5,379 bases of DNA from Nitrospira sp. GTDB lineage: Bacteria > Nitrospirota > Nitrospiria > Nitrospirales > Nitrospiraceae. The notes beneath the pieces are model-generated. The model saw nothing but the letters and a program-made list of their open reading frames with translations. It was not told where the DNA came from and did not search any database. The position numbers and the translations under genes are program-made. The stretch spans positions 1-5,379 of the forward strand of contig JABMDE010000211.1 of assembly GCA_015904055.1 (NCBI GenBank). The letters run 5' to 3'. Positions 1 to 5,319 of the stretch are shown here, one piece after another (the first letter of the stretch is position 1; every line of letters starts with the position of its first letter).

Positions 1-288
1 TTCGGTGATCACATCGCGCAACTGTTCGATCAGTGTCAGCTGTCCGTCTTCCGGATAGTAGTCGCAGAAGAGGTACAGATTCGCGAGCTCTACTTCCTGT
101 TCCAGCGGCGGGACAAGCCGTCCTGCGCCACCGTTCAGATATGGCTTGAGCACGCGTGCAAAGGCCACCTCACGTTGCACTCGAAATTCTGGCTTAAGGG
201 AGAGGTGTTCCAGGCGTGCGAGAATCGCATCCAGAAACGGAGGCCTCTGAGTCCAGAATCCTGTTGCTTGTTCACTCGCGAGCTTCAT
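1..288 (-). CDS. Hypothetical protein, N-terminal 96 residues (3' end outside window)
   Basis: An open frame runs from an ATG at 288-286 to the window edge without a stop, so only the first 96 residues are visible. The start is supported by a GGGAG Shine-Dalgarno (299-295) six bases upstream, and by a 17-nt overlap with the end of the preceding DUF2934 gene, typical of translational coupling. The visible part is soluble-looking, with no signal peptide or membrane segment. It is rich in Leu, Glu and Arg, probably helical, with an aromatic/acidic stretch near residues 76-82 (YLFCDYY) followed by PEDGQLTLIEQLRD. I do not recognise the family and assign no function. Its place at the end of a Usp/cupredoxin operon suggests co-expression with stress genes, but says nothing about its activity. 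Confidence 0.75.
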   Translation of the reverse strand, partial: MKLASEQATGFWTQRPPFLDAILARLEHLSLKPEFRVQREVAFARVLKPYLNGGAGRLVPPLEQEVELANLYLFCDYYPEDGQLTLIEQLRDVITE

Positions 289-496
289 GGATTTCTCCCA
301 TCACGATTTCTTCTGCGTCGAGCCAGTTTTGGAGGGCATTCCCGTCTTGACGACCCCGTTCTTCCCAGAGCTCGTACGCTTTCTGCGAGATCCGCTCCCA
401 CATGCCATCCGGGAATTCCATAGGTCTTTCCGCCAAGCTGGTTGCAGAGGAAGATCGGCCTTTTCCTTTACTGCTTGTTGTTGGATTCCTTCGCAT
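272..496 (-). CDS. DUF2934 domain-containing small protein
   Basis: This 74-residue protein carries the DUF2934 signature. After a basic, low-complexity N-terminus (about residues 1-28, Ser/Lys/Arg-rich) comes a helical block, residues about 33-70, with the family pattern I-S-x-K-A-Y-E-L-W-E-E-R-G-R, then a short linker and N-W-L-D-A-E-E. DUF2934 proteins are small, often occur in several copies per genome in Nitrospirota and Proteobacteria, and have no established biochemical role. The ATG at 496-494 has a GAGGAG Shine-Dalgarno (508-503) six bases upstream. The gene begins 14 nt after the stop of the tandem Usp gene, and its last 17 nt overlap the next gene, so it sits inside the minus-strand operon. 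No signal peptide, membrane segment or metal-binding motif is visible. Confidence 0.85.
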   Translation of the reverse strand: MRRNPTTSSKGKGRSSSATSLAERPMEFPDGMWERISQKAYELWEERGRQDGNALQNWLDAEEIVMGEIHEARE

Positions 497-510
497 GACT
501 CACTCCTCGG

Positions 511-714
511 TTACACGGTGGTTACGATGGATTGTTCAGAGGACACACGGCGATGACCTGGTTGAAACTTCGGATTGCGGACGGTCAACACAGGGCGCAA
601 GGATCTTCGAAGGACAGACTCTGTGATGCTGCCAAATAGCGTATGGGACAAGCCGCGGCGGCCATGGGTTCCCATCACGATCATATCAATCGACTGCGAT
701 CTGGCCGTCTCGAG
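511..714 (-). pseudogene. C-terminal remainder of the frameshifted tandem universal stress protein
   Basis: These 67 codons (CTC at 714-712 to TAA at 513-511) complete the second Usp domain of the gene that starts at 1457, but lie in a different frame. They hold the nucleotide-binding signature G-T-H-G, nine residues, G-S, preceded by the strand D-M-I-V-M and followed by the usual P-V-L-T-V-R final strand and a short polar tail. The fragment has no start or ribosome binding site of its own at the junction. Removing two C residues (or adding one base) in the run at 714-717 would join the halves into a 314-residue two-domain protein. This is either a true mutation or a base-calling/assembly error; the good conservation downstream of the shift favours an error or a very recent lesion. 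Confidence 0.8.
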
Positions 715-1457
715 GGGATCGAATCGGCCGGCAGTCCACCCGAAATGGTGAAGTCGGACGAGACTCCAGCCGATGTATATGCCGAAGCAAGGTTGGACAG
801 TTGTCCCGTCAGTTTCCCAAGAATCTGCTCTCGCTTGACGACATGCGGAAACGTGAAATCCAGTCCATAGGCGACCGGCTCCAACACATGCAGAAGCGTG
901 AGAGACGCCTGTGCCCGCTGGGCGACCAACGCCGCGTACTCCAGCGCGTCGAGAGCACAATCTGAAAAGTCGATCGGAACAAGGATTCGGTGGAGTGCCG
1001 GGGGAGACAGTTGGTGTCCGCCCACCTCTTGCACGTGCACCGGCACAGCCAGAACCGGACAGGGTGCCATCCGAATCACTCGCTCTGCCGTGCTGCCTAA
1101 CAAGATATGCTTGAGACCGGTATTTCCTCTTGTTCCGACCACGATCACTGCGGTTTCTTCAGCTCGAGCTTGAACCAGCACCTCCTCGTACGGAATCCCC
1201 GTCGCAATACGCGAGTCCACCGAAAGCCCATACTGATTCGCCCTCAGTTTCACATCGACCAATTTCTGTGTGGCCTCCGCCATCCTCTTTGTGAGATAGA
1301 GTCGGTTCACTGCATAGTCCGGATCCATCCCTGGAGGAAACTCAAGAACCGTGATCACCCTTACTGGCAGGCCCCATGAAGCAGCCAAAGCATAGGCATA
1401 CTGCTCGACTGCTTGAGCCCCTCTCGAGAGATCTGTCGCAAGCAGGATGGCAGACAT
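681..1457 (-). CDS. Tandem universal stress protein (UspA family), intact first domain and truncated second domain
   Basis: The open frame encodes 258 residues. The first Usp domain (about 1-140) begins with the strand S-A-I-L-L-A-T-D-L, whose Asp is the usual adenine-contact position, and ends with the ATP-binding signature G108-T-R-G, nine residues, G121-S122, then the P-C-P-V-L-A-V strand. A second domain starts near residue 157 (R-I-L-V-P-I-D-F-S) and is correct up to Ile247. The frame then shifts at the C-run (714-717 on the plus strand), and 11 unrelated residues precede a stop. The start at 1457 is preferred over one 10 codons upstream, because GGAGGA (1469-1464) lies six bases before it and the upstream codons overlap the cupredoxin stop region. 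Usp proteins are cytoplasmic and bind ATP/AMP; roles include stress survival. Third gene of the minus-strand operon, 13 nt after the cupredoxin gene. Confidence 0.85.
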   Translation of the reverse strand: MSAILLATDLSRGAQAVEQYAYALAASWGLPVRVITVLEFPPGMDPDYAVNRLYLTKRMAEATQKLVDVKLRANQYGLSVDSRIATGIPYEEVLVQARAEETAVIVVGTRGNTGLKHILLGSTAERVIRMAPCPVLAVPVHVQEVGGHQLSPPALHRILVPIDFSDCALDALEYAALVAQRAQASLTLLHVLEPVAYGLDFTFPHVVKREQILGKLTGQLSNLASAYTSAGVSSDFTISGGLPADSIPSRRPDRSRLI

Positions 1458-1470
1458 CAATATTCCTCCG

Positions 1471-1902
1471 TCACACGGCCTCCGCACTCAGAATTAAGAG
1501 TTCACCCTTCATGTTGGGATGAATCGAACATCGAAACTCATGCCGACCAGGTCGAGACAACTCAAACCGCACGACCACTTCCCGCTTGGGATCGAGCATG
1601 ACCCCACTGAGACCCTGTCCGTACACAATGACCCCGTCTTTCTCAATCTTTGTGGACAGCCCGCTAAACATGGTCGAGCTAAAATCGTGTCGCTCCACGT
1701 CTTCATTCCGCACCTTGATAACGGTCGGCAATCCCAGACGGAGTGGACTTTGCTTCGTCATGAAACGCGAATCTTTGATCGTTACCTCCACCACCTGCTC
1801 GGACTGCGCCAGAAGAGCTGAGCCATACACGCAGGCCATGAACGTCATGGTCAGCGCCATGCCCCATCTCCGCCCCTGCAACAAATTGCTCTCACTCGCC
1901 AT
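1471..1902 (-). CDS. Secreted cupredoxin-domain (plastocyanin-like) protein
   Basis: A 143-residue exported protein. Residues 1-33 look like a signal peptide: an Arg-Arg pair at 11-12, a hydrophobic stretch about 14-32, and possible cleavage after Leu-Leu-Ala (residue 32). The mature part is a small beta-rich domain with the full type 1 copper ligand set in order: His72 (in E-R-H-D-F), Cys125, His128 and Met131 (C-S-I-H-P-N-M), followed by the closing strand K-G-E-L-L-I-L. This arrangement fits cupredoxin_1-like domains, which carry electrons or bind copper in the periplasm. Which partner it serves cannot be told from the sequence. The ATG at 1902 has GGAGG (1912-1908) five bases upstream. 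It sits between two Usp genes, with 18 nt and 13 nt gaps. Lipoprotein processing was considered, but the Cys at 24 lacks a proper lipobox. Confidence 0.88.
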   Translation of the reverse strand: MASESNLLQGRRWGMALTMTFMACVYGSALLAQSEQVVEVTIKDSRFMTKQSPLRLGLPTVIKVRNEDVERHDFSSTMFSGLSTKIEKDGVIVYGQGLSGVMLDPKREVVVRFELSRPGRHEFRCSIHPNMKGELLILSAEAV

Positions 1903-1920: not shown

Positions 1921-2424
1921 TCAATGCGTTGACTTCTGCTGTGATGTGGAGACCGGACAGGGCACGGTCAATACCGGACAGCCAGCAGTACGAACGACCT
2001 TTTCTGCTGTGCTGCCAAAGAAAAGCTTGTCCACACTGCCGGACCGGCCGCCATAGCTGCCCATCACGACCAAATCGAGCTTCCCCGTGCGTGCAACTTT
2101 GGCGATCTCCACGAACGGTGTGCCTTCCACGATCAGGCGGGTGATCTTCACCTCCTCAGCCACTGACGATTCCAACAACTGCCGTACTTTTAGGCGAGCG
2201 TGATGACGTAATCGGCGACGCTGTGGAGCCGCATCGGAAGGAACAGCCAACAGGCCCAATCGATGGAATGCCGCGAGCGTGCTCGTATCGATCACATGCA
2301 AGACCTGCACACTCGCCCCACACAGCCGCGCCATTTGACAGGCGACCCGGAATGCCTTGTCAGAACAGGGGGAGAAATCGACCGGAACCAGGATAGTCTC
2401 AAAGAGATCCGTCTTCTTCTCCAT
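1921..2424 (-). CDS. Universal stress protein, single domain (UspA family)
   Basis: A 167-residue single Usp domain. The N-terminal strand I-L-V-P-V-D-F-S (11-18) carries the conserved Asp16. A helix and the H-V-I-D strand follow, then the G-T-P-F-V-E-I segment near 101-107, the L-D-L-V-V-M-G strand, the nucleotide loop G122-S-Y-G125 ... G137-S138 and the P-V-L-T-V-P end strand. The loop has 11 residues between the second and third Gly instead of the usual nine, a small insertion whose effect on ATP binding is unknown. The start at 2424 is chosen over an in-frame ATG 16 codons upstream, because AGGAGGA (2437-2431) sits six bases before it. In addition, the sigma-54-type promoter at 2465-2450 would place the transcript start near 2439, downstream of the longer start. 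First gene of the minus-strand operon. Confidence 0.92.
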   Translation of the reverse strand: MEKKTDLFETILVPVDFSPCSDKAFRVACQMARLCGASVQVLHVIDTSTLAAFHRLGLLAVPSDAAPQRRRLRHHARLKVRQLLESSVAEEVKITRLIVEGTPFVEIAKVARTGKLDLVVMGSYGGRSGSVDKLFFGSTAEKVVRTAGCPVLTVPCPVSTSQQKSTH

Positions 2425-2449
2425 GAACGATCCTCCTGGCGGACAACTG

Positions 2450-2465
2450 AGCAAGCGCGGTGCCA
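2450..2465 (-). promoter_or_regulatory. Sigma-54 (RpoN) -24/-12 promoter for the usp-cupredoxin operon
   Basis: On the minus strand the sequence is TGGCACCGCGCTTGCT, an exact match to the RpoN consensus TGGCAC-N5-TTGCW with correct spacing between the invariant GG (2464-2463) and GC (2452-2451). By the usual rule the transcript would start about 12 bases past the GC, near 2439. That gives a 15-nt leader that just contains the Shine-Dalgarno of the Usp gene at 2424. The fit of consensus, orientation and distance makes a chance match unlikely. Transcription would require an AAA+ enhancer-binding protein, which is not encoded in the window. Confidence 0.8.
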
Positions 2466-2558
2466 CCGCCAAGAGTGGATGGTTGATGCCTGAAGACTTG
2501 GAGAAACCATGGGTTTGGCATTCTCGCTCTTGCTATCAGGGATCCGCCCTACATTCCG

Positions 2559-2569
2559 CCTTCAGAAGG
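2559..2569. promoter_or_regulatory. Inverted repeat, candidate activator site
   Basis: CCTTC-A-GAAGG is a perfect 5-bp inverted repeat with a one-base centre. Its centre is about 125 bp upstream of the predicted minus-strand transcript start and about 180 bp upstream of the plus-strand one, in the range typical for RpoN enhancer sites. Function is inferred from position only. Confidence 0.3.
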
Positions 2570-2578
2570 AGGGGAGCT

Positions 2579-2590
2579 CTGCTACAGCAG
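2579..2590. promoter_or_regulatory. Second inverted repeat, candidate activator site
   Basis: CTGCT-AC-AGCAG is a perfect 5-bp inverted repeat with a two-base centre. It lies almost exactly midway between the two predicted sigma-54 transcript starts (about 145 and 161 bp away). It could be a shared enhancer half of a larger site, but arms this short also arise by chance. Confidence 0.25.
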
Positions 2591-2627
2591 CCGTTTGCCT
2601 CCTGTGGCAGAAGGCGACAAAAGTTTA

Positions 2628-2684
2628 GGGTGCGGAGTGAGGGGACTATGCAGAAGAATGTCTGTGCCTCTTCACTCCTTACCC
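2628..2684. repeat. Imperfect intergenic inverted repeat (hairpin-forming)
   Basis: The arms GGGT-gc-GGAGTGA (2628-2640) and TCACTCC-tt-ACCC (2672-2684) pair over 7 bp plus 4 bp, with a two-base mismatch/wobble between. An inner CAGA/TCTG pair (2651-2654 with 2661-2664) closes a six-base loop. The right arm runs into a C-rich tract of degenerate ACTC/ACCC/TACCC units up to about 2706. It lies between divergent promoters, so it is not a terminator for either neighbouring operon. It resembles a dispersed intergenic repeat or a degraded element; copy number cannot be judged here. Confidence 0.4.
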
Positions 2685-2706
2685 ACTCACCCTGTACCCC
2701 GTACCA

Positions 2707-2720
2707 GTTCTTTCAAGAAC
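2707..2720. promoter_or_regulatory. 14-bp palindrome abutting the plus-strand -24 element
   Basis: GTTCTT-TC-AAGAAC has perfect 6-bp arms around a two-base centre. Its right edge touches the first base of the plus-strand sigma-54 promoter match (2720-2735). A protein bound here would contact or block the -24 region, so an operator is possible. No known regulator motif is recognised. Confidence 0.4.
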
Positions 2721-2735
2721 GGCATTGGACTTGCT
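2720..2735 (+). promoter_or_regulatory. Sigma-54 (RpoN) -24/-12 promoter for the mgtE-usp-cytochrome operon
   Basis: CGGCATTGGACTTGCT fits the RpoN pattern TGGCAC-N5-TTGCW at 14 of 16 positions (the N5 spacer counted as free), with the invariant GG (2721-2722) and GC (2733-2734) at correct spacing and a perfect TTGCT. The first T and the sixth C differ. The predicted transcript start is near 2746, 19 nt before the small membrane ORF at 2765 and ahead of its Shine-Dalgarno-like GGGGA. It is weaker than the opposing promoter, but position and orientation agree well. Confidence 0.65.
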
Positions 2736-2764
2736 GAAGACCATGTTCAGGAATGGGGATAACG

Positions 2765-2860
2765 ATGACACGTGCACAGTGGGTACTTCTTGGGGCCATA
2801 GGGGTGGGCATGGCAATCGTGGTCTATTTTATCTTCTTCTGTCCGGTGGATTGTCAGTGA
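2765..2860 (+). CDS. 31-residue single-span membrane peptide with C-terminal CPVDC motif
   Basis: ATG at 2765 to TGA at 2858-2860 encodes 31 residues: a short N-terminus with one Arg, a hydrophobic segment from Trp6 to Phe25, then C-P-V-D-C-Q. By the positive-inside rule the N-terminus would be cytoplasmic and the two cysteines (26 and 30) periplasmic, where they could form a disulfide or bind a metal. A GGGGA motif (2755-2759) lies five bases before the ATG. The ORF starts 19 nt after a predicted sigma-54 transcript start and ends 22 nt before the transporter gene, so it is well placed to be translated as the first gene of the operon. I recognise no named family. Alternatively it is a leader peptide or a chance ORF, but its hydrophobicity and position favour a real membrane miniprotein. 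Confidence 0.6.
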   Translation: MTRAQWVLLGAIGVGMAIVVYFIFFCPVDCQ

Positions 2861-2882: not shown

Positions 2883-3839
2883 ATGGCAACTGCTGCAGAC
2901 CTGATGACGGTGGACATTCCACGGAGTGACCGACACAGCACCGTCGGAGACATGATCGGGGCGCTTCGAGGTCATACGTGGGATGAGGTGGGCCACATCT
3001 ATCTTGTGGATGATCAGGCAGCACTGGTCGGCCAGGTTCCGATCGAGCGGCTGCTCCAGGCGAAGGAACAGACCTACCTGACCGAGCTCGAAGGTTCCCC
3101 TCCAATCGAGGTCTTTCCCGGGGACGAAGCTGAAACAGTCGCATTACGTGCCGTTGAACGCCACGATGCCGACGTGGCCGTCATCGACAACCGTCGTCGA
3201 TTGTTGGGCGCCATTCCGATCGGGCGGCTCTTGGCCCTGCTGCATGAGGAACATGTGGACAATTTCTTGCGGATGGGCGGTGTGAGCCGCATGGATCATC
3301 TCCATCTGTCGCTCACCGTGCAGCAGATACTCACCGCCGTGCGCGCGCGTCTGCCATGGTTGATGGTCGGCCTGGGTGGAGGATTCCTGGCCGGTGGTGT
3401 GGCCTCGGCGTTCGAAGCGTCGCTGAAACGCGAGGTGGCCCTCGCGTTCTTTCTTCCTCTGGTCGTGTATATGGCCGACGCTGTCGGGACTCAAACTGAA
3501 ACCGTTTTGGTTCGTCGGTTGGCCTATGGAGAGGTCTCGTTGTGGGAGCAATTGGCGAGAGAGTCGGTGATCGGCGCATCCATCGGAGTCATCATTGCTG
3601 TAGTCGCAAGCGGTGGACTGTGGCTCTGGAGTGGACACCCGGCCTTGGCGATCGTGGTGGGAACTTCGCTGGGGATGACCGCCATCATCGCCACCATTAT
3701 GGCCAGCCTCCTACCGATGGGATTGGCGCGTCTCGGTGCAGATCCGGCCTTGGCGAGTGGACCGGTAGCGACCGTTGTCCAAGACATTTTGAGCGTGGGG
3801 ATTTATCTGATGATCGCGACGGCCGTACTGCCCATGTGA
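2883..3839 (+). CDS. MgtE-type magnesium/divalent cation transporter with CBS domains, lacking the MgtE N domain
   Basis: A 318-residue protein with two CBS domains (about 1-60 and 66-124) followed by an MgtE membrane domain (about 156-318). The latter has about five transmembrane helices, near 157-176, 185-201, 228-249, 253-278 and 296-316. MgtE hallmarks are visible: R-L-P-W-L before the first helix, P-L-V-V-Y-M-A-D-A-V-G-T-Q-T (192-205) in the second, and D-P-A-L-A-S-G-P plus Asp301 in the last, which aligns with the pore Asp432 of Thermus thermophilus MgtE. Canonical MgtE is about 450 residues with an N-terminal superhelical domain that is absent here; the CBS pair begins at once. In MgtE the CBS domains sense Mg2+ and can bind ATP. 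The ATG at 2883 follows GAGGGAG (2872-2878). Substrate is inferred from the family; Mg2+ is most likely, but related short forms may carry other divalent cations. Confidence 0.88.
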   Translation: MATAADLMTVDIPRSDRHSTVGDMIGALRGHTWDEVGHIYLVDDQAALVGQVPIERLLQAKEQTYLTELEGSPPIEVFPGDEAETVALRAVERHDADVAVIDNRRRLLGAIPIGRLLALLHEEHVDNFLRMGGVSRMDHLHLSLTVQQILTAVRARLPWLMVGLGGGFLAGGVASAFEASLKREVALAFFLPLVVYMADAVGTQTETVLVRRLAYGEVSLWEQLARESVIGASIGVIIAVVASGGLWLWSGHPALAIVVGTSLGMTAIIATIMASLLPMGLARLGADPALASGPVATVVQDILSVGIYLMIATAVLPM

Positions 3840-3885: not shown

Positions 3886-4749
3886 ATGAAACTCTTGCTC
3901 GCAGTCGACGGTTCCGACAACTCGTATGAAGCGGTGCGATCCCTCAAGTACCTGACCCGTGTCGAGGAATTACACCTCCTGCACGTGCTTGATGTTCCGA
4001 GTCCAGCCTATCCGATGATGATGCCGGAAGTGTCACAAGAGCTGTACGAGGCTGTTGAGCGAAACATGCGCGATGACGGGACTCGGTTGTTGGATCGCAT
4101 CGTGTCGTTGCTGCCATTGGATGCCGGACCGGTCACGAGGCATTTGGTCGTTGGATCTCCGGTGGATCAGATCGTGGCGTTGGCTGAACAGCTCAAGGTG
4201 GGCCTCATTCTGTTGGGTGCTCGAGGCCTTGGACCGATCAAGGAACGGCTCGTTGGAAGTGTCTCCCACCGAGTACTGACATTCGGGCCGGGCTCGAAGC
4301 TGATTCTTCCCGGTCCCCTGAAAGCGCTTCGCCACATCTTGCTGCCCCTGCAAGGGAGTTATGATGCTGACCATGCGCTCTCCTTCCTTCAACAGAAACC
4401 CTTCCGCGAACCACCCACAATCACCTTGTTCACCGTCTTGCCCCACACCCGACCGCCCTGGCCGGTGGATGCTGTCTTGTCCGGGCATATGGAATCCCAT
4501 TCCCTCGGCAAAGCGAAGGATTTCCTCGACGAGATCGCCGCCAAGCTGAAGCCGTATGGCTATCAAACCCGCGTAGCGACTCTGTCGGGCACTCCGGTCG
4601 ATGGAATCCTTCAGGAAGCCAAGGCCTTGAATCCAGACCTCATCCTGATGGGATCTCGTGGACGCCGCGGCGTCACCCGCATAGTGCTCGGTAGTGTCTC
4701 GCATGCGTTGTTACACCAGCGAGCCTATCCACTCATGATCTTTGGTTAA
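3886..4749 (+). CDS. Tandem-domain universal stress protein (UspA family)
   Basis: A 287-residue cytoplasmic protein made of two Usp domains. Domain 1 (about 1-143) starts L-L-L-A-V-D-G-S with Asp8 and has the nucleotide signature G111-A-R-G, nine residues, G124-S125. Domain 2 (about 147-287) has G256-S-R-G, nine residues, G269-S270, but its first strand reads L-L-P-L-Q-G-S, so the usual adenine-contact Asp is replaced by Gln156. Both glycine loops look able to bind ATP, although domain 2 may bind more weakly. An AAAGG Shine-Dalgarno (3874-3878) lies seven bases before the ATG, and the gene starts 46 nt after the transporter stop. Its neighbours suggest a role tied to ion homeostasis or redox stress. 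It is not a simple copy of the minus-strand tandem Usp: the inter-domain region and many loop residues differ. Confidence 0.92.
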   Translation: MKLLLAVDGSDNSYEAVRSLKYLTRVEELHLLHVLDVPSPAYPMMMPEVSQELYEAVERNMRDDGTRLLDRIVSLLPLDAGPVTRHLVVGSPVDQIVALAEQLKVGLILLGARGLGPIKERLVGSVSHRVLTFGPGSKLILPGPLKALRHILLPLQGSYDADHALSFLQQKPFREPPTITLFTVLPHTRPPWPVDAVLSGHMESHSLGKAKDFLDEIAAKLKPYGYQTRVATLSGTPVDGILQEAKALNPDLILMGSRGRRGVTRIVLGSVSHALLHQRAYPLMIFG

Positions 4750-4766: not shown

Positions 4767-4931
4767 ATGCCCATGTATGACTACAAGTGTTTGGATTGTG
4801 GAAAAGAATCGTTGATCGTGGTGACGCTCAAAGAGCATGAGCGGGGCGAAGTCACATGTCCGGCTTGCAGCAGCAAGAAGCTGCAACAGCTCTTCAGTTC
4901 GTTCATTGCTCACACCACAAAGAAGAGTTGA
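4767..4931 (+). CDS. FmdB-family zinc ribbon protein
   Basis: A 54-residue protein beginning M-P-M-Y-D-Y-K-C-L-D-C-G, the classic FmdB-type opening, with a second knuckle C-P-A-C at residues 31-34. The four cysteines (8, 11, 31, 34) make a single zinc ribbon. FmdB-like proteins are often described as putative regulatory proteins, but their role is mostly unproven. The tail after the second knuckle is short (K-L-Q-Q-L-F-S-S-F, then basic residues), whereas many relatives have a longer Ser/Gly/Lys-rich tail. GAGGA (4755-4759) lies seven bases before the ATG. The gene starts 17 nt after the Usp stop, and the cytochrome gene begins 4 nt after its own stop, so it is co-transcribed with both. Confidence 0.88.
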   Translation: MPMYDYKCLDCGKESLIVVTLKEHERGEVTCPACSSKKLQQLFSSFIAHTTKKS

Positions 4932-4935
4932 TCAT

Positions 4936-5319
4936 ATGCAGAACCAATTCTCCTCACACCATACACAACACTGGTTTCTCATCGGACTGTCGGCGCTTAT
5001 CACGGTGGGTGCCGCTTCCATGACGACTGTCTCCGCTCAAGATTATCCACCAGACCGCGCACGCGGGAAAGCGATCTATCAGCGCCATTGTCAGGATTGC
5101 CATGGCCTTACCGGTCAAGGCGATGGGCCTGCCGCTGCGTCCTTGACAGTTCCCCCGGCCAATTTGCAGCGATCTCGGTCATTCCTGAAGTCCGACGAAG
5201 AGTTACTGCGCACGATCGAGCATGGGGTGGTCTTTAGTCCGATGCATTCCTGGCGCGGACAACTTACCGATGGAGAAATGCAGGACGTCGTGGCGTACAT
5301 CCGCGTTCTGTCGCAATAG
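4936..5319 (+). CDS. Periplasmic mono-heme cytochrome c
   Basis: A 127-residue exported class I cytochrome c. Residues 1-34 form a signal peptide (hydrophobic core about 13-27, likely cleavage after V-S-A at 34). The mature part has one heme-binding motif C52-Q-D-C55-H56, followed by G-x-T-G-Q-G-D-G-P-A-A. The likely distal ligand is Met103 in S-P-M-H-S-W, and a C-terminal helix ends in D-V-V-A-Y-I-R. This is the usual layout of cytochrome c subunits that shuttle or accept electrons in the periplasm. The ATG at 4936 is chosen, although the frame stays open another 33 codons upstream, because those codons overlap the FmdB gene and only this start gives a signal peptide. The Shine-Dalgarno is weak (GAAGAG, 4922-4927), suggesting coupling to the preceding gene, whose stop is 4 nt away. 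Confidence 0.9.
   Translation: MQNQFSSHHTQHWFLIGLSALITVGAASMTTVSAQDYPPDRARGKAIYQRHCQDCHGLTGQGDGPAAASLTVPPANLQRSRSFLKSDEELLRTIEHGVVFSPMHSWRGQLTDGEMQDVVAYIRVLSQ

What the first reader, a model, noticed from the sequence alone, without database searches (positions are those of the whole stretch)
2425..2764. Divergent pair of sigma-54 promoters between two stress/redox operons
Two -24/-12 matches face outward in a 340-bp intergenic region: an exact one on the minus strand (2465-2450) and a 14/16 one on the plus strand (2720-2735). Each puts its transcript start 15-19 nt before a start codon, just enough to include the Shine-Dalgarno. This suggests RpoN and a shared enhancer-binding protein co-control both Usp operons. 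RpoN control of a whole Usp/MgtE/cupredoxin/cytochrome locus is not something I know to be described.
Basis: partly seen in the sequence, partly recalled or inferred. Interest (0 to 1): 0.72.

Follow-up and report, generated by a model that had tools for sequence, protein, structure and literature searches.

The report
Nitrospira sigma-54 stress-gene switch
Between two groups of stress and redox genes in a nitrite-oxidising Nitrospira bacterium lie two back-to-back switches of the rare sigma-54 type, sharing one conserved activator site, which look like part of a larger control network in these bacteria.

Summary
The -24/-12 sites (minus 2465-2450, plus 2720-2735) are real. The plus site alone is chance-level in one sequence. 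In 58 non-redundant related loci, however, 56 keep the minus site, 54 the plus site and 54 both. rpoN is present in 8 of 8 genomes tested, one of them an unreliable assembly.

I read it as two back-to-back activator sites about 33 bp apart, each about 110 bp from its own promoter: one shared enhancer.

Similar operators precede sigma-54-like sites at dodecin, cytochrome c, outer-membrane efflux and haem peroxidase genes in other Nitrospira. One also precedes an operon for a receiver protein and a sigma-54 activator whose N-terminal part has four invariant cysteines. That activator is my candidate regulator (about 55%).

A low-oxygen or redox signal is inferred, weakly, from gene content and an N. 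marina proteome paper. Nothing was tested at the bench. My searches found no description of this regulon. Kind: new member of a known kind (enhancer-dependent sigma-54 regulon).

The parts
2450..2465 (-). sigma-54 -24/-12 promoter for the leftward operon (TGGCACCGCGCTTGCT); predicted start about 2439
   Evidence: conserved in 56 of 58 non-redundant loci
2720..2735 (+). sigma-54 -24/-12 promoter for the rightward operon (CGGCATTGGACTTGCT); predicted start about 2746
   Evidence: conserved in 54 of 58 loci
2580..2609 (.). core of shared enhancer: inverted repeat TGCTACAG-N14-CTGTGGCA
   Evidence: coordinates; repeat found in 55 of 58 loci; spacer 14 in 55 of 56 copies lined up, 6 of 62 loci having been dropped for want of a pattern match
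2602..2620 (.). right operator dyad CTGTGGCA-GAA-GGCGACAA, 110 bp from the plus-strand -24 GG
   Evidence: same dyad form as upstream of the activator operon
2569..2587 (.). left operator: strong half TGCTACAG with conserved GGGG outer half, 114 bp from the minus-strand -24 GG
   Evidence: outer half is degenerate, so its reading as a dimer site is inferred
1921..2424 (-). universal stress protein (first gene of leftward operon)
   Evidence: PF00582 2.4e-29
1471..1902 (-). cupredoxin-like protein
   Evidence: PF13473 1.1e-09
526..1457 (-). tandem universal stress protein, reading frame shifts at about 714-717 in this window
   Evidence: PF00582 in both pieces; intact orthologue of L001 aligns in two frames
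272..496 (-). DUF2934 protein
   Evidence: PF11154 9.6e-13
2765..2860 (+). 31-aa ORF ending FFCPVDCQ, first gene of rightward operon
   Evidence: no Pfam hit; found in 29 of 30 relatives, 48-81% identical
2883..3839 (+). MgtE-like divalent cation transporter with a weak CBS match
   Evidence: PF01769 5.1e-24; CBS below its cut-off
3886..4749 (+). tandem universal stress protein
   Evidence: PF00582 1.5e-41
4767..4931 (+). small FmdB-type zinc ribbon protein
   Evidence: PF09723 1.3e-11; name FmdB recalled
4936..5319 (+). small c-type cytochrome (CxxCH in the translation)
   Evidence: within ORF 4837-5319; relatives found; not scanned against Pfam

Best explanation
The gap between the two operons is a divergent, enhancer-dependent sigma-54 control region. 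RNA polymerase with RpoN sits closed at each -24/-12 promoter. An NtrC-family activator binds two operator dyads placed back to back, centres about 33 bp (three helical turns) apart, each about 110 bp from its own -24 element, and fires both operons together: Usp/cupredoxin/Usp leftward and 31-aa protein/MgtE/Usp/zinc ribbon/cytochrome c rightward. The region belongs to a regulon in Nitrospira. The most likely activator is the four-cysteine AAA+/Fis protein encoded with a receiver protein behind its own copy of operator plus sigma-54 promoter. SHOWN by sequence: conserved promoters, conserved inverted repeat, rpoN present in relatives, operator repeated at other operons including the activator's. 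INFERRED: binding, activator identity, and that the signal is low oxygen or redox.
For: Promoter pair conserved in 54 of 58 loci and the inverted repeat in 55 of 58, while other gap positions diverge. rpoN in 8 of 8 genomes and 17-29 matches to the sigma-54 activator domain in each of G001-G007 (these counts include weak AAA+ matches). Operator model matches at E<=1e-5 in 69 of 77 genomes (my count). Of 36 operator hits re-scored in selected regions, 19 have an outward sigma-54 site of 9 or more within 350 bp (14 of 24 and 5 of 12), against about 8 expected from the background density; three of the 19 are Usp loci (L261, L265, L266). Receiver-activator operon: sigma-54 site of 8 or more at -55 to -70 in 31 of 33 genomes and dyad TGTNGC-N5-GCNACA at -175 to -221 in 23 of 33; the other 10 keep a degenerate copy. 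Palindrome-to-promoter distance there 111-114 bp, against 110 and 114 bp in the window. No such dyad lies within 420 bp upstream of the neighbouring NtrC-type gene in 8 of 8 clusters. The activator keeps the GAFTGA loop in 119 of 120 homologues, and C77, C88, C91 and C116 (P0002 numbering) are invariant in 120 of 120; these 120 are the best listed of 7997 hits, hence close relatives.
Against: No experiment. Activator identity: five genomes with a strong operator (G014, G033, G030, G079, G053) gave no hit for the activator's N-terminal domain nor an orthologue of the neighbouring NtrC-type activator; four are 2.6-2.7 Mb and may be incomplete, but G014 is 4.1 Mb. G034 and G048 have the activator but only weak operator hits. 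The neighbouring NtrC-type protein (GAFTDA loop in the G003 copy) is not excluded as the binder; an activator need not regulate its own gene. In G006 and G007 no sigma-54 site was found before the receiver gene. The outer left half of the window enhancer is degenerate. The strict dyad alone is only mildly enriched: 20 matches in 7 of 10 genomes against 12 for the reversed control. Of the 36 re-scored operator hits, 17 have no outward sigma-54 site of 9 or more. The window's own genome is not held, so rpoN there is inferred from relatives.
Confidence: 0.85

Rival explanations
1. The promoters and shared enhancer are as described, but the activator is another of the many activators, most plausibly the 459-aa NtrC-type response regulator encoded just upstream with its PAS histidine kinase.
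For: It lies in the same cluster in the eight cluster copies compared and is more conserved than the candidate: 84-98% identical to the G003 copy against 66-93%. Each of G001-G007 has many activators. It is absent together with the candidate from 7 of the 8 exception genomes; G075 alone has it without the candidate.
Against: The operator with a sigma-54 promoter lies in front of the receiver-activator pair, a usual place for autoregulation, whereas 0 of 8 clusters have the dyad within 420 bp upstream of the NtrC-type gene, although a sigma-54-like site (TGGTCC-N5-TTGCA type) is there in 8 of 8. Its loop reads GAFTDA rather than GAFTGA in the G003 copy.
Confidence: 0.25
2. The central repeat is the site of a non-sigma-54 regulator (for example of the CRP/FNR family) acting on ordinary promoters, and the -24/-12 matches are incidental.
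For: CRP/FNR proteins (an NnrR-like one among them) have been proposed for NO and oxygen responses in a Nitrospira genome bin (PMC8510549, passages).
Against: The -24/-12 elements themselves are conserved in 54-56 of 58 loci; no sigma-70 site in the gap; strict dyads elsewhere lie 111-133 bp from outward sigma-54 sites in 11 of 16 cases. The fixed 14-bp spacer and the long distance do not look like a CRP/FNR site (recalled).
Confidence: 0.05
3. Chance promoter-like matches carried along by shared ancestry.
For: Plus site is chance-level in one sequence; the loci compared are relatives, mostly one genus.
Against: Gap sequences diverge strongly elsewhere and vary in length, while both promoters and the repeat are kept; the same pairing recurs at unrelated operons.
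Confidence: 0.02
4. The central inverted repeat is an RNA element (hairpin or terminator) rather than an operator.
For: It is an inverted repeat.
Against: It lies upstream of both predicted starts, so neither predicted transcript contains it; no Rfam family in the window; no terminator-like site there.
Confidence: 0.02

Closest known systems
NtrC (glnG) enhancer of enteric glnA (recalled, no call)
   Same: Two activator sites about three helical turns apart, roughly 100-140 bp upstream, acting on a sigma-54 promoter; dyad of the form half-N3-half
   Different: Operator sequence differs (CTGTNGCA-N3-TGCNACAG form), the two sites serve two divergent promoters, and the genes are stress and redox genes, not nitrogen genes
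CbrB sites of Pseudomonas, TGTTAC-N14-GTAACA (recalled, no call)
   Same: Similar half-site letters and 14-bp spacing between inverted halves
   Different: No CbrAB orthology tested; here the spacer separates two larger dyads
Predicted sigma-54 control of UspA genes in Planctomycetia (PMC12316311, passages)
   Same: Computational prediction of sigma-54 promoters before universal stress genes
   Different: Different phylum; the word Nitrospir- does not occur in the main text; the passages I saw describe no shared enhancer, activator or divergent pair for them
Sigma-54-dependent regulators at Nitrospira nxr loci (PMC6606698, PMC7522533, passages)
   Same: Sigma-54-dependent regulator genes already noted in Nitrospira
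   Different: Proposed for nitrite oxidoreductase, not for Usp/redox operons; no operator given in the passages I saw
Low-oxygen Usp response of Nitrospira marina (PMC8115632, sections 16-18 and passages)
   Same: Four UspA proteins and neighbouring electron-transport, carbon-metabolism and energy-metabolism clusters rise at low oxygen
   Different: The authors suggest a regulatory role for UspA itself and, in what I read, name no transcription factor or promoter (sigma and RpoN: 0 occurrences); I could not open Data Set 3 and did not check that this locus is among them

Membership tests
sigma-54-dependent promoter | GG and GC dinucleotides with N10 between, close to TGGCACG-N4-TTGCW | tested here: met
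   minus 11/12, plus 9/12; kept in 56 and 54 of 58 loci
sigma-54-dependent promoter | rpoN in the organism | tested here: met
   met in relatives only: PF04552 in 8 of 8 related genomes, G008 being an unreliable assembly; the window's own genome is not held
sigma-54-dependent promoter | transcript starts about 12 nt after the -12 element and depends on RpoN | not testable with these tools
   needs primary-transcript mapping and an RpoN test
sigma-54 enhancer (upstream activating sequence) | conserved dyad 80-200 bp upstream of the start (range recalled) | tested here: met
   dyad centres 110 and 114 bp from the -24 elements, i.e. about 135 and 139 bp from the predicted starts; repeat found in 55 of 58 loci
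sigma-54 enhancer (upstream activating sequence) | bound by an NtrC-family activator | not testable with these tools
   candidate named by operator-promoter at its own operon
NtrC-family activator (candidate regulator) | sigma-54 AAA+ domain with GAFTGA loop and Fis-type HTH | tested here: met
   PF00158 4.9e-68, PF02954 2e-11 in the G003 copy; GAFTGA in 119 of 120 homologues
NtrC-family activator (candidate regulator) | present wherever the operator is present | tested here: inconclusive
   N-terminal domain found in 69 of 77 genomes; missing in five genomes with a strong operator
redox or Fe-S sensing N-terminal domain | cysteine ligands | tested here: inconclusive
   four invariant Cys in 120 of 120 homologues, all close relatives; no sequence match to a solved structure; no Pfam hit in that part

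The most novel reading that the evidence does not exclude
Nitrospira carry an undescribed, largely genus-wide sigma-54 regulon, run by an autoregulated activator with a four-cysteine sensor domain, that switches universal stress proteins together with cytochromes, cupredoxins, dodecin, efflux, protease, peroxidase and storage-carbon genes when oxygen or redox conditions change: a nitrifier counterpart of dormancy-type regulons built on RpoN instead of a DosR-like or FNR-like factor.
Probability: 0.4. Interest if true: 0.75.

Novelty: new member of a known kind. Interest (0 to 1): 0.6.

Why it matters
[quoted passage not shown] How they adjust to low oxygen or redox stress is poorly understood; the one low-oxygen proteome paper whose sections I read names no transcription factor for it. 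A shared operator, a promoter class and a candidate activator give a directly testable handle: one DNA-binding assay and one start-site map would confirm or kill it. It also extends sigma-54 control to a stress-protein and electron-transport network with a divergent, single-enhancer layout.

Tried and rejected
Chance explanation: rejected by conservation, although the plus site alone would not have survived. Sigma-70 promoters: none in the gap. RNA element: no Rfam family. A pairing of two activators about 4 kb apart first suggested the regulator cluster; the operator in front of the receiver gene then supported it. The closeness of the activator gene to the Usp operator (75 to 292 kb in the five genomes with a contig of 3.6 Mb or more that I compared, from coordinates) fits, but shared synteny makes it weak evidence and I give it no weight. 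Co-occurrence of operator and activator across the genus is not discriminating because both are nearly universal. PDB search with the sensor domain found nothing. The strict dyad pattern by itself is poorly specific. The loose repeat pattern hit 57 of 79 genomes, but its reversed control also hit 35 of 79 by my count, so I rely on the model and on gene context.

G008/L027 is labelled Candidatus Parvibacillus calidus and carries a Nitrospira-like locus near a contig start. I treat it as a probable mis-assembly; it is nevertheless one of the 58 loci, one of the 8 genomes and, through its repeat, one of the 31 training copies.

Full report
WHAT IS IN THE WINDOW. The window carries two divergent gene groups. 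Leftward from 2424 lie a universal stress protein (Usp), a cupredoxin, a tandem Usp, a DUF2934 protein and a further ORF. Rightward from 2765 lie a 31-codon ORF, an MgtE-like transporter, a tandem Usp, a small zinc-ribbon protein and a small c-type cytochrome. The closest public relatives are Nitrospira: of the loci L001-L030, at 60-93% protein identity, 25 are titled Nitrospira sp., three Nitrospirae or Nitrospirota, one Nitrosospira (L013) and one Candidatus Parvibacillus (L027). No genome is held for the window itself.

THE OBSERVATION. The minus site matches 11 of 12 specified positions and the plus site 9 of 12; they are the only sites of 9 or more in the window. In 300 shuffles of the window the mean is 2.47 sites of 9 or more and 0.067 of 11 or more; an outward pair in the gap arises in 4 of 2000 shuffles of the gap. 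Taken alone, then, the plus site is unremarkable.

CONSERVATION. I aligned the gaps of 29 of the 30 relatives with the window (L025 left out because its minus site lay beyond that scan), and later took every locus in hand with a Usp orthologue next to enough upstream DNA. Keeping one of each group of similar gaps (12-mer overlap above 0.5 removed) leaves 58. Of these, 56 have a minus site of 9 or more, 54 a plus site, 54 both, and 55 the central repeat. L021 and L022 miss at this Usp copy; their promoter pair lies elsewhere upstream of the MgtE gene. L195 has only the minus site, the plus site of L029 scores 8, and L016 has both promoters but no repeat match. GG and GC are required by the scan, but the neighbouring CA, TT and final T, which are not required, are also 100% among the passing sites shown (56 minus, 52 plus), while positions outside the elements are mostly at 35-70%. 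rpoN is found in 8 of 8 genomes. TGGCAY-N5-TTGCT occurs 7-22 times per genome against 2-7 for the reversed control; 12 of the 22 in G003 are one repeated 16-mer.

THE MISSED ELEMENT. Midway between the promoters the alignment shows a second conserved block, TGCYACAG-N14-CTGTRGCA followed by GAAGGCGNCA and preceded by GGGG. In the window it is 2580-2609. The spacer is 14 in 55 of 56 copies; 6 of the 62 loci given to that script had no match to its pattern or placing rule and were dropped. The right half reads as a dyad, CTGTGGCA-GAA-GGCGACAA (2602-2620); the left half is its mirror with a degenerate outer arm. The dyad centres are about 33 bp apart and lie 110 bp (plus) and 114 bp (minus) from the -24 GG of their promoters. 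This is the geometry of an enhancer with two activator sites, as recalled for NtrC at glnA.

THE SAME OPERATOR ELSEWHERE. A 53-position sequence model built from 31 copies was run over 77 genomes: 76 have a match at E<=1 and, by my count of the table, 69 at E<=1e-5. Many genomes contributed training copies, so the Usp hits are partly by construction; four of the 31 training copies came from the dodecin/cytochrome and peroxidase loci. Further sites were fetched for a selection of places. In the regions operator hits at E<=0.01 remain after merging, and 19 of them (14 of 24, 5 of 12) have an outward sigma-54 site of 9 or more within 350 bp, against about 8 expected from the density. Examples: dodecin facing a cytochrome c and cupredoxins (L185, L198; L186 and L189 look alike, L193 shows dodecin); an animal-type haem peroxidase (L149/L199); TolC-type outer-membrane proteins with GGCTC-N5-TTGCA-type sites (L256, L259, L263, L271, L274, L285; only L263 was Pfam-tested, and L285 is a weak operator hit); an FtsH-like protein (L255, L267) and a probable trehalose-synthase-type glycosyltransferase (L257) (names from sequence appearance, no Pfam run); and a cytochrome c'-like protein with a pyridine-nucleotide oxidoreductase (L277, sigma-54 score 8). 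Operator hits without a good sigma-54 site include both in L253, that beside a probable ATPase beta subunit in L254, and that in L264.

INDEPENDENT CHECK OF THE DYAD. The strict dyad CTGTNGC-N5-GCNACAG occurs 20 times in 7 of 10 genomes, against 12 for the reversed control, so it is not specific alone. Of the 16 occurrences with flanks in hand, 11 have a sigma-54 site of 9 or more pointing outward 60-180 bp away, against about 1.2 expected from the background density. Some of the 11 are orthologues of one another, so they represent about six gene families. Pointing inward there were 4 of 16, three of which lie over the activator promoter itself, read on the other strand.

THE CANDIDATE ACTIVATOR. 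In G001-G005 and G009 a conserved cluster encodes an NtrC-type activator (459 aa in G003), a PAS histidine kinase, a stand-alone receiver and a 476-aa activator; in G006 and G007 the other three genes are there but no kinase match of 45% or more was found. Upstream of the receiver gene, 31 of 33 genomes have a sigma-54 site of 8 or more at -55 to -70, and 23 of 33 have the dyad (outer base free) at -175 to -221. The 10 others keep a degenerate version such as CTGTAGCATCYTGCACCGG. These 33 are the eight cluster loci and the best-scoring loci, not the whole set of 69 genomes; one further locus (L329) was dropped because its upstream DNA was cut, and four loci duplicated genomes already counted. 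The palindrome-to-promoter distance there is 111-114 bp. Upstream of the NtrC-type gene 0 of 8 clusters have the dyad within 420 bp, though 8 of 8 have a sigma-54-like site. The activator has PF00158 and a Fis-type HTH. Its N-terminal part has no Pfam match and no solved relative by sequence, but C77, C88, C91 and C116 are invariant in the 120 best of 7997 homologues, and 119 of these 120 have GAFTGA. Source names for it are general: sigma-54-dependent regulator, AtoC, HydG, hypothetical protein and the like. Its N-terminal domain was found in 69 of 77 genomes.

RESULTS AGAINST. G014, G033, G030, G079 and G053 have a strong operator but gave no hit for the activator's N-terminal domain nor an orthologue of the NtrC-type neighbour. 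G034 and G048 have the activator but only weak operator hits. The NtrC-type neighbour remains a rival binder.

SIGNAL. PMC8115632 (sections 16-18 and passages) reports that four UspA proteins, all beside upregulated operons including electron-transport and carbon-metabolism genes, rise in N. marina at low oxygen. The authors suggest a regulatory role for UspA itself; no transcription factor is named in what I read. I could not see its data tables and did not confirm that this locus is present there, so the low-oxygen link is a lead.

WHAT IS IN PRINT. Searches: (held open-access library only). Sigma-54-dependent regulators are discussed for Nitrospira nxr loci, Nitrospira rpoN has been co-expressed in E. 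coli for quorum-sensing work, CRP/FNR regulators are proposed for a Nitrospira bin, and sigma-54 promoters before UspA genes are predicted for Planctomycetia; of all these I saw passages only. I found no description of this divergent pair, operator or regulon.

VERDICT. A real divergent sigma-54 promoter pair with a shared enhancer (about 0.9), part of a wider Nitrospira regulon (about 0.8), probably run by the Cys-rich activator (about 0.55), with a redox or low-oxygen signal plausible (about 0.4).

Noticed in passing
window 714-717 (minus strand gene 526-1475): The tandem Usp gene changes reading frame here; the orthologue in L001 aligns in two frames that meet at this point. Sequencing error or a recent mutation; not resolved.
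   Followed up: partly
window 2765-2860: A 31-codon ORF (hydrophobic, ending FFCPVDCQ) directly after the plus promoter is found in 29 of 30 relatives at 48-81% identity, also where no MgtE gene follows, as in L183. Function unknown.
   Followed up: partly
L007 3926-6001: A tandem duplication of the cupredoxin-Usp-enhancer-small ORF unit with a short MgtE fragment between copies; both copies keep both promoters and the repeat.
   Followed up: no
L027 (G008 contig start): A genome labelled Candidatus Parvibacillus calidus carries the Nitrospira-type locus within 10-24 kb of its contig start; probably a mis-assembly, since its two strong sigma-54 activators lie in surroundings unlike those of the other genomes.
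   Followed up: partly
G003, 12 places listed: The identical promoter-like 16-mer TGGCATCCACATTGCT occurs 12 times in this one genome, suggesting a dispersed repeat element carrying a sigma-54-like site.
   Followed up: no
G009 78-314 kb and G068 2.20-2.49 Mb: 5 of 5 (G009) and 5 of 6 (G068) distinct model hits at E<=1, and the activator gene, lie within about 240-290 kb, suggesting a conserved stress/redox region. A strict dyad at G009 2965177 lies outside.
   Followed up: partly
L288 4000-4600 (G069): A second stand-alone receiver gene, 56% identical to the cluster's receiver, has its own weak operator-like site and a strong sigma-54 site (TGGCACTCCTCTTGCT).
   Followed up: no
upstream of the NtrC-type gene in L293-L299 and L302: A sigma-54-like site of the form TGGTCC-N5-TTGCA is found in 8 of 8 clusters, at varying distance, hinting that this activator gene may be under sigma-54 control too.
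   Followed up: no
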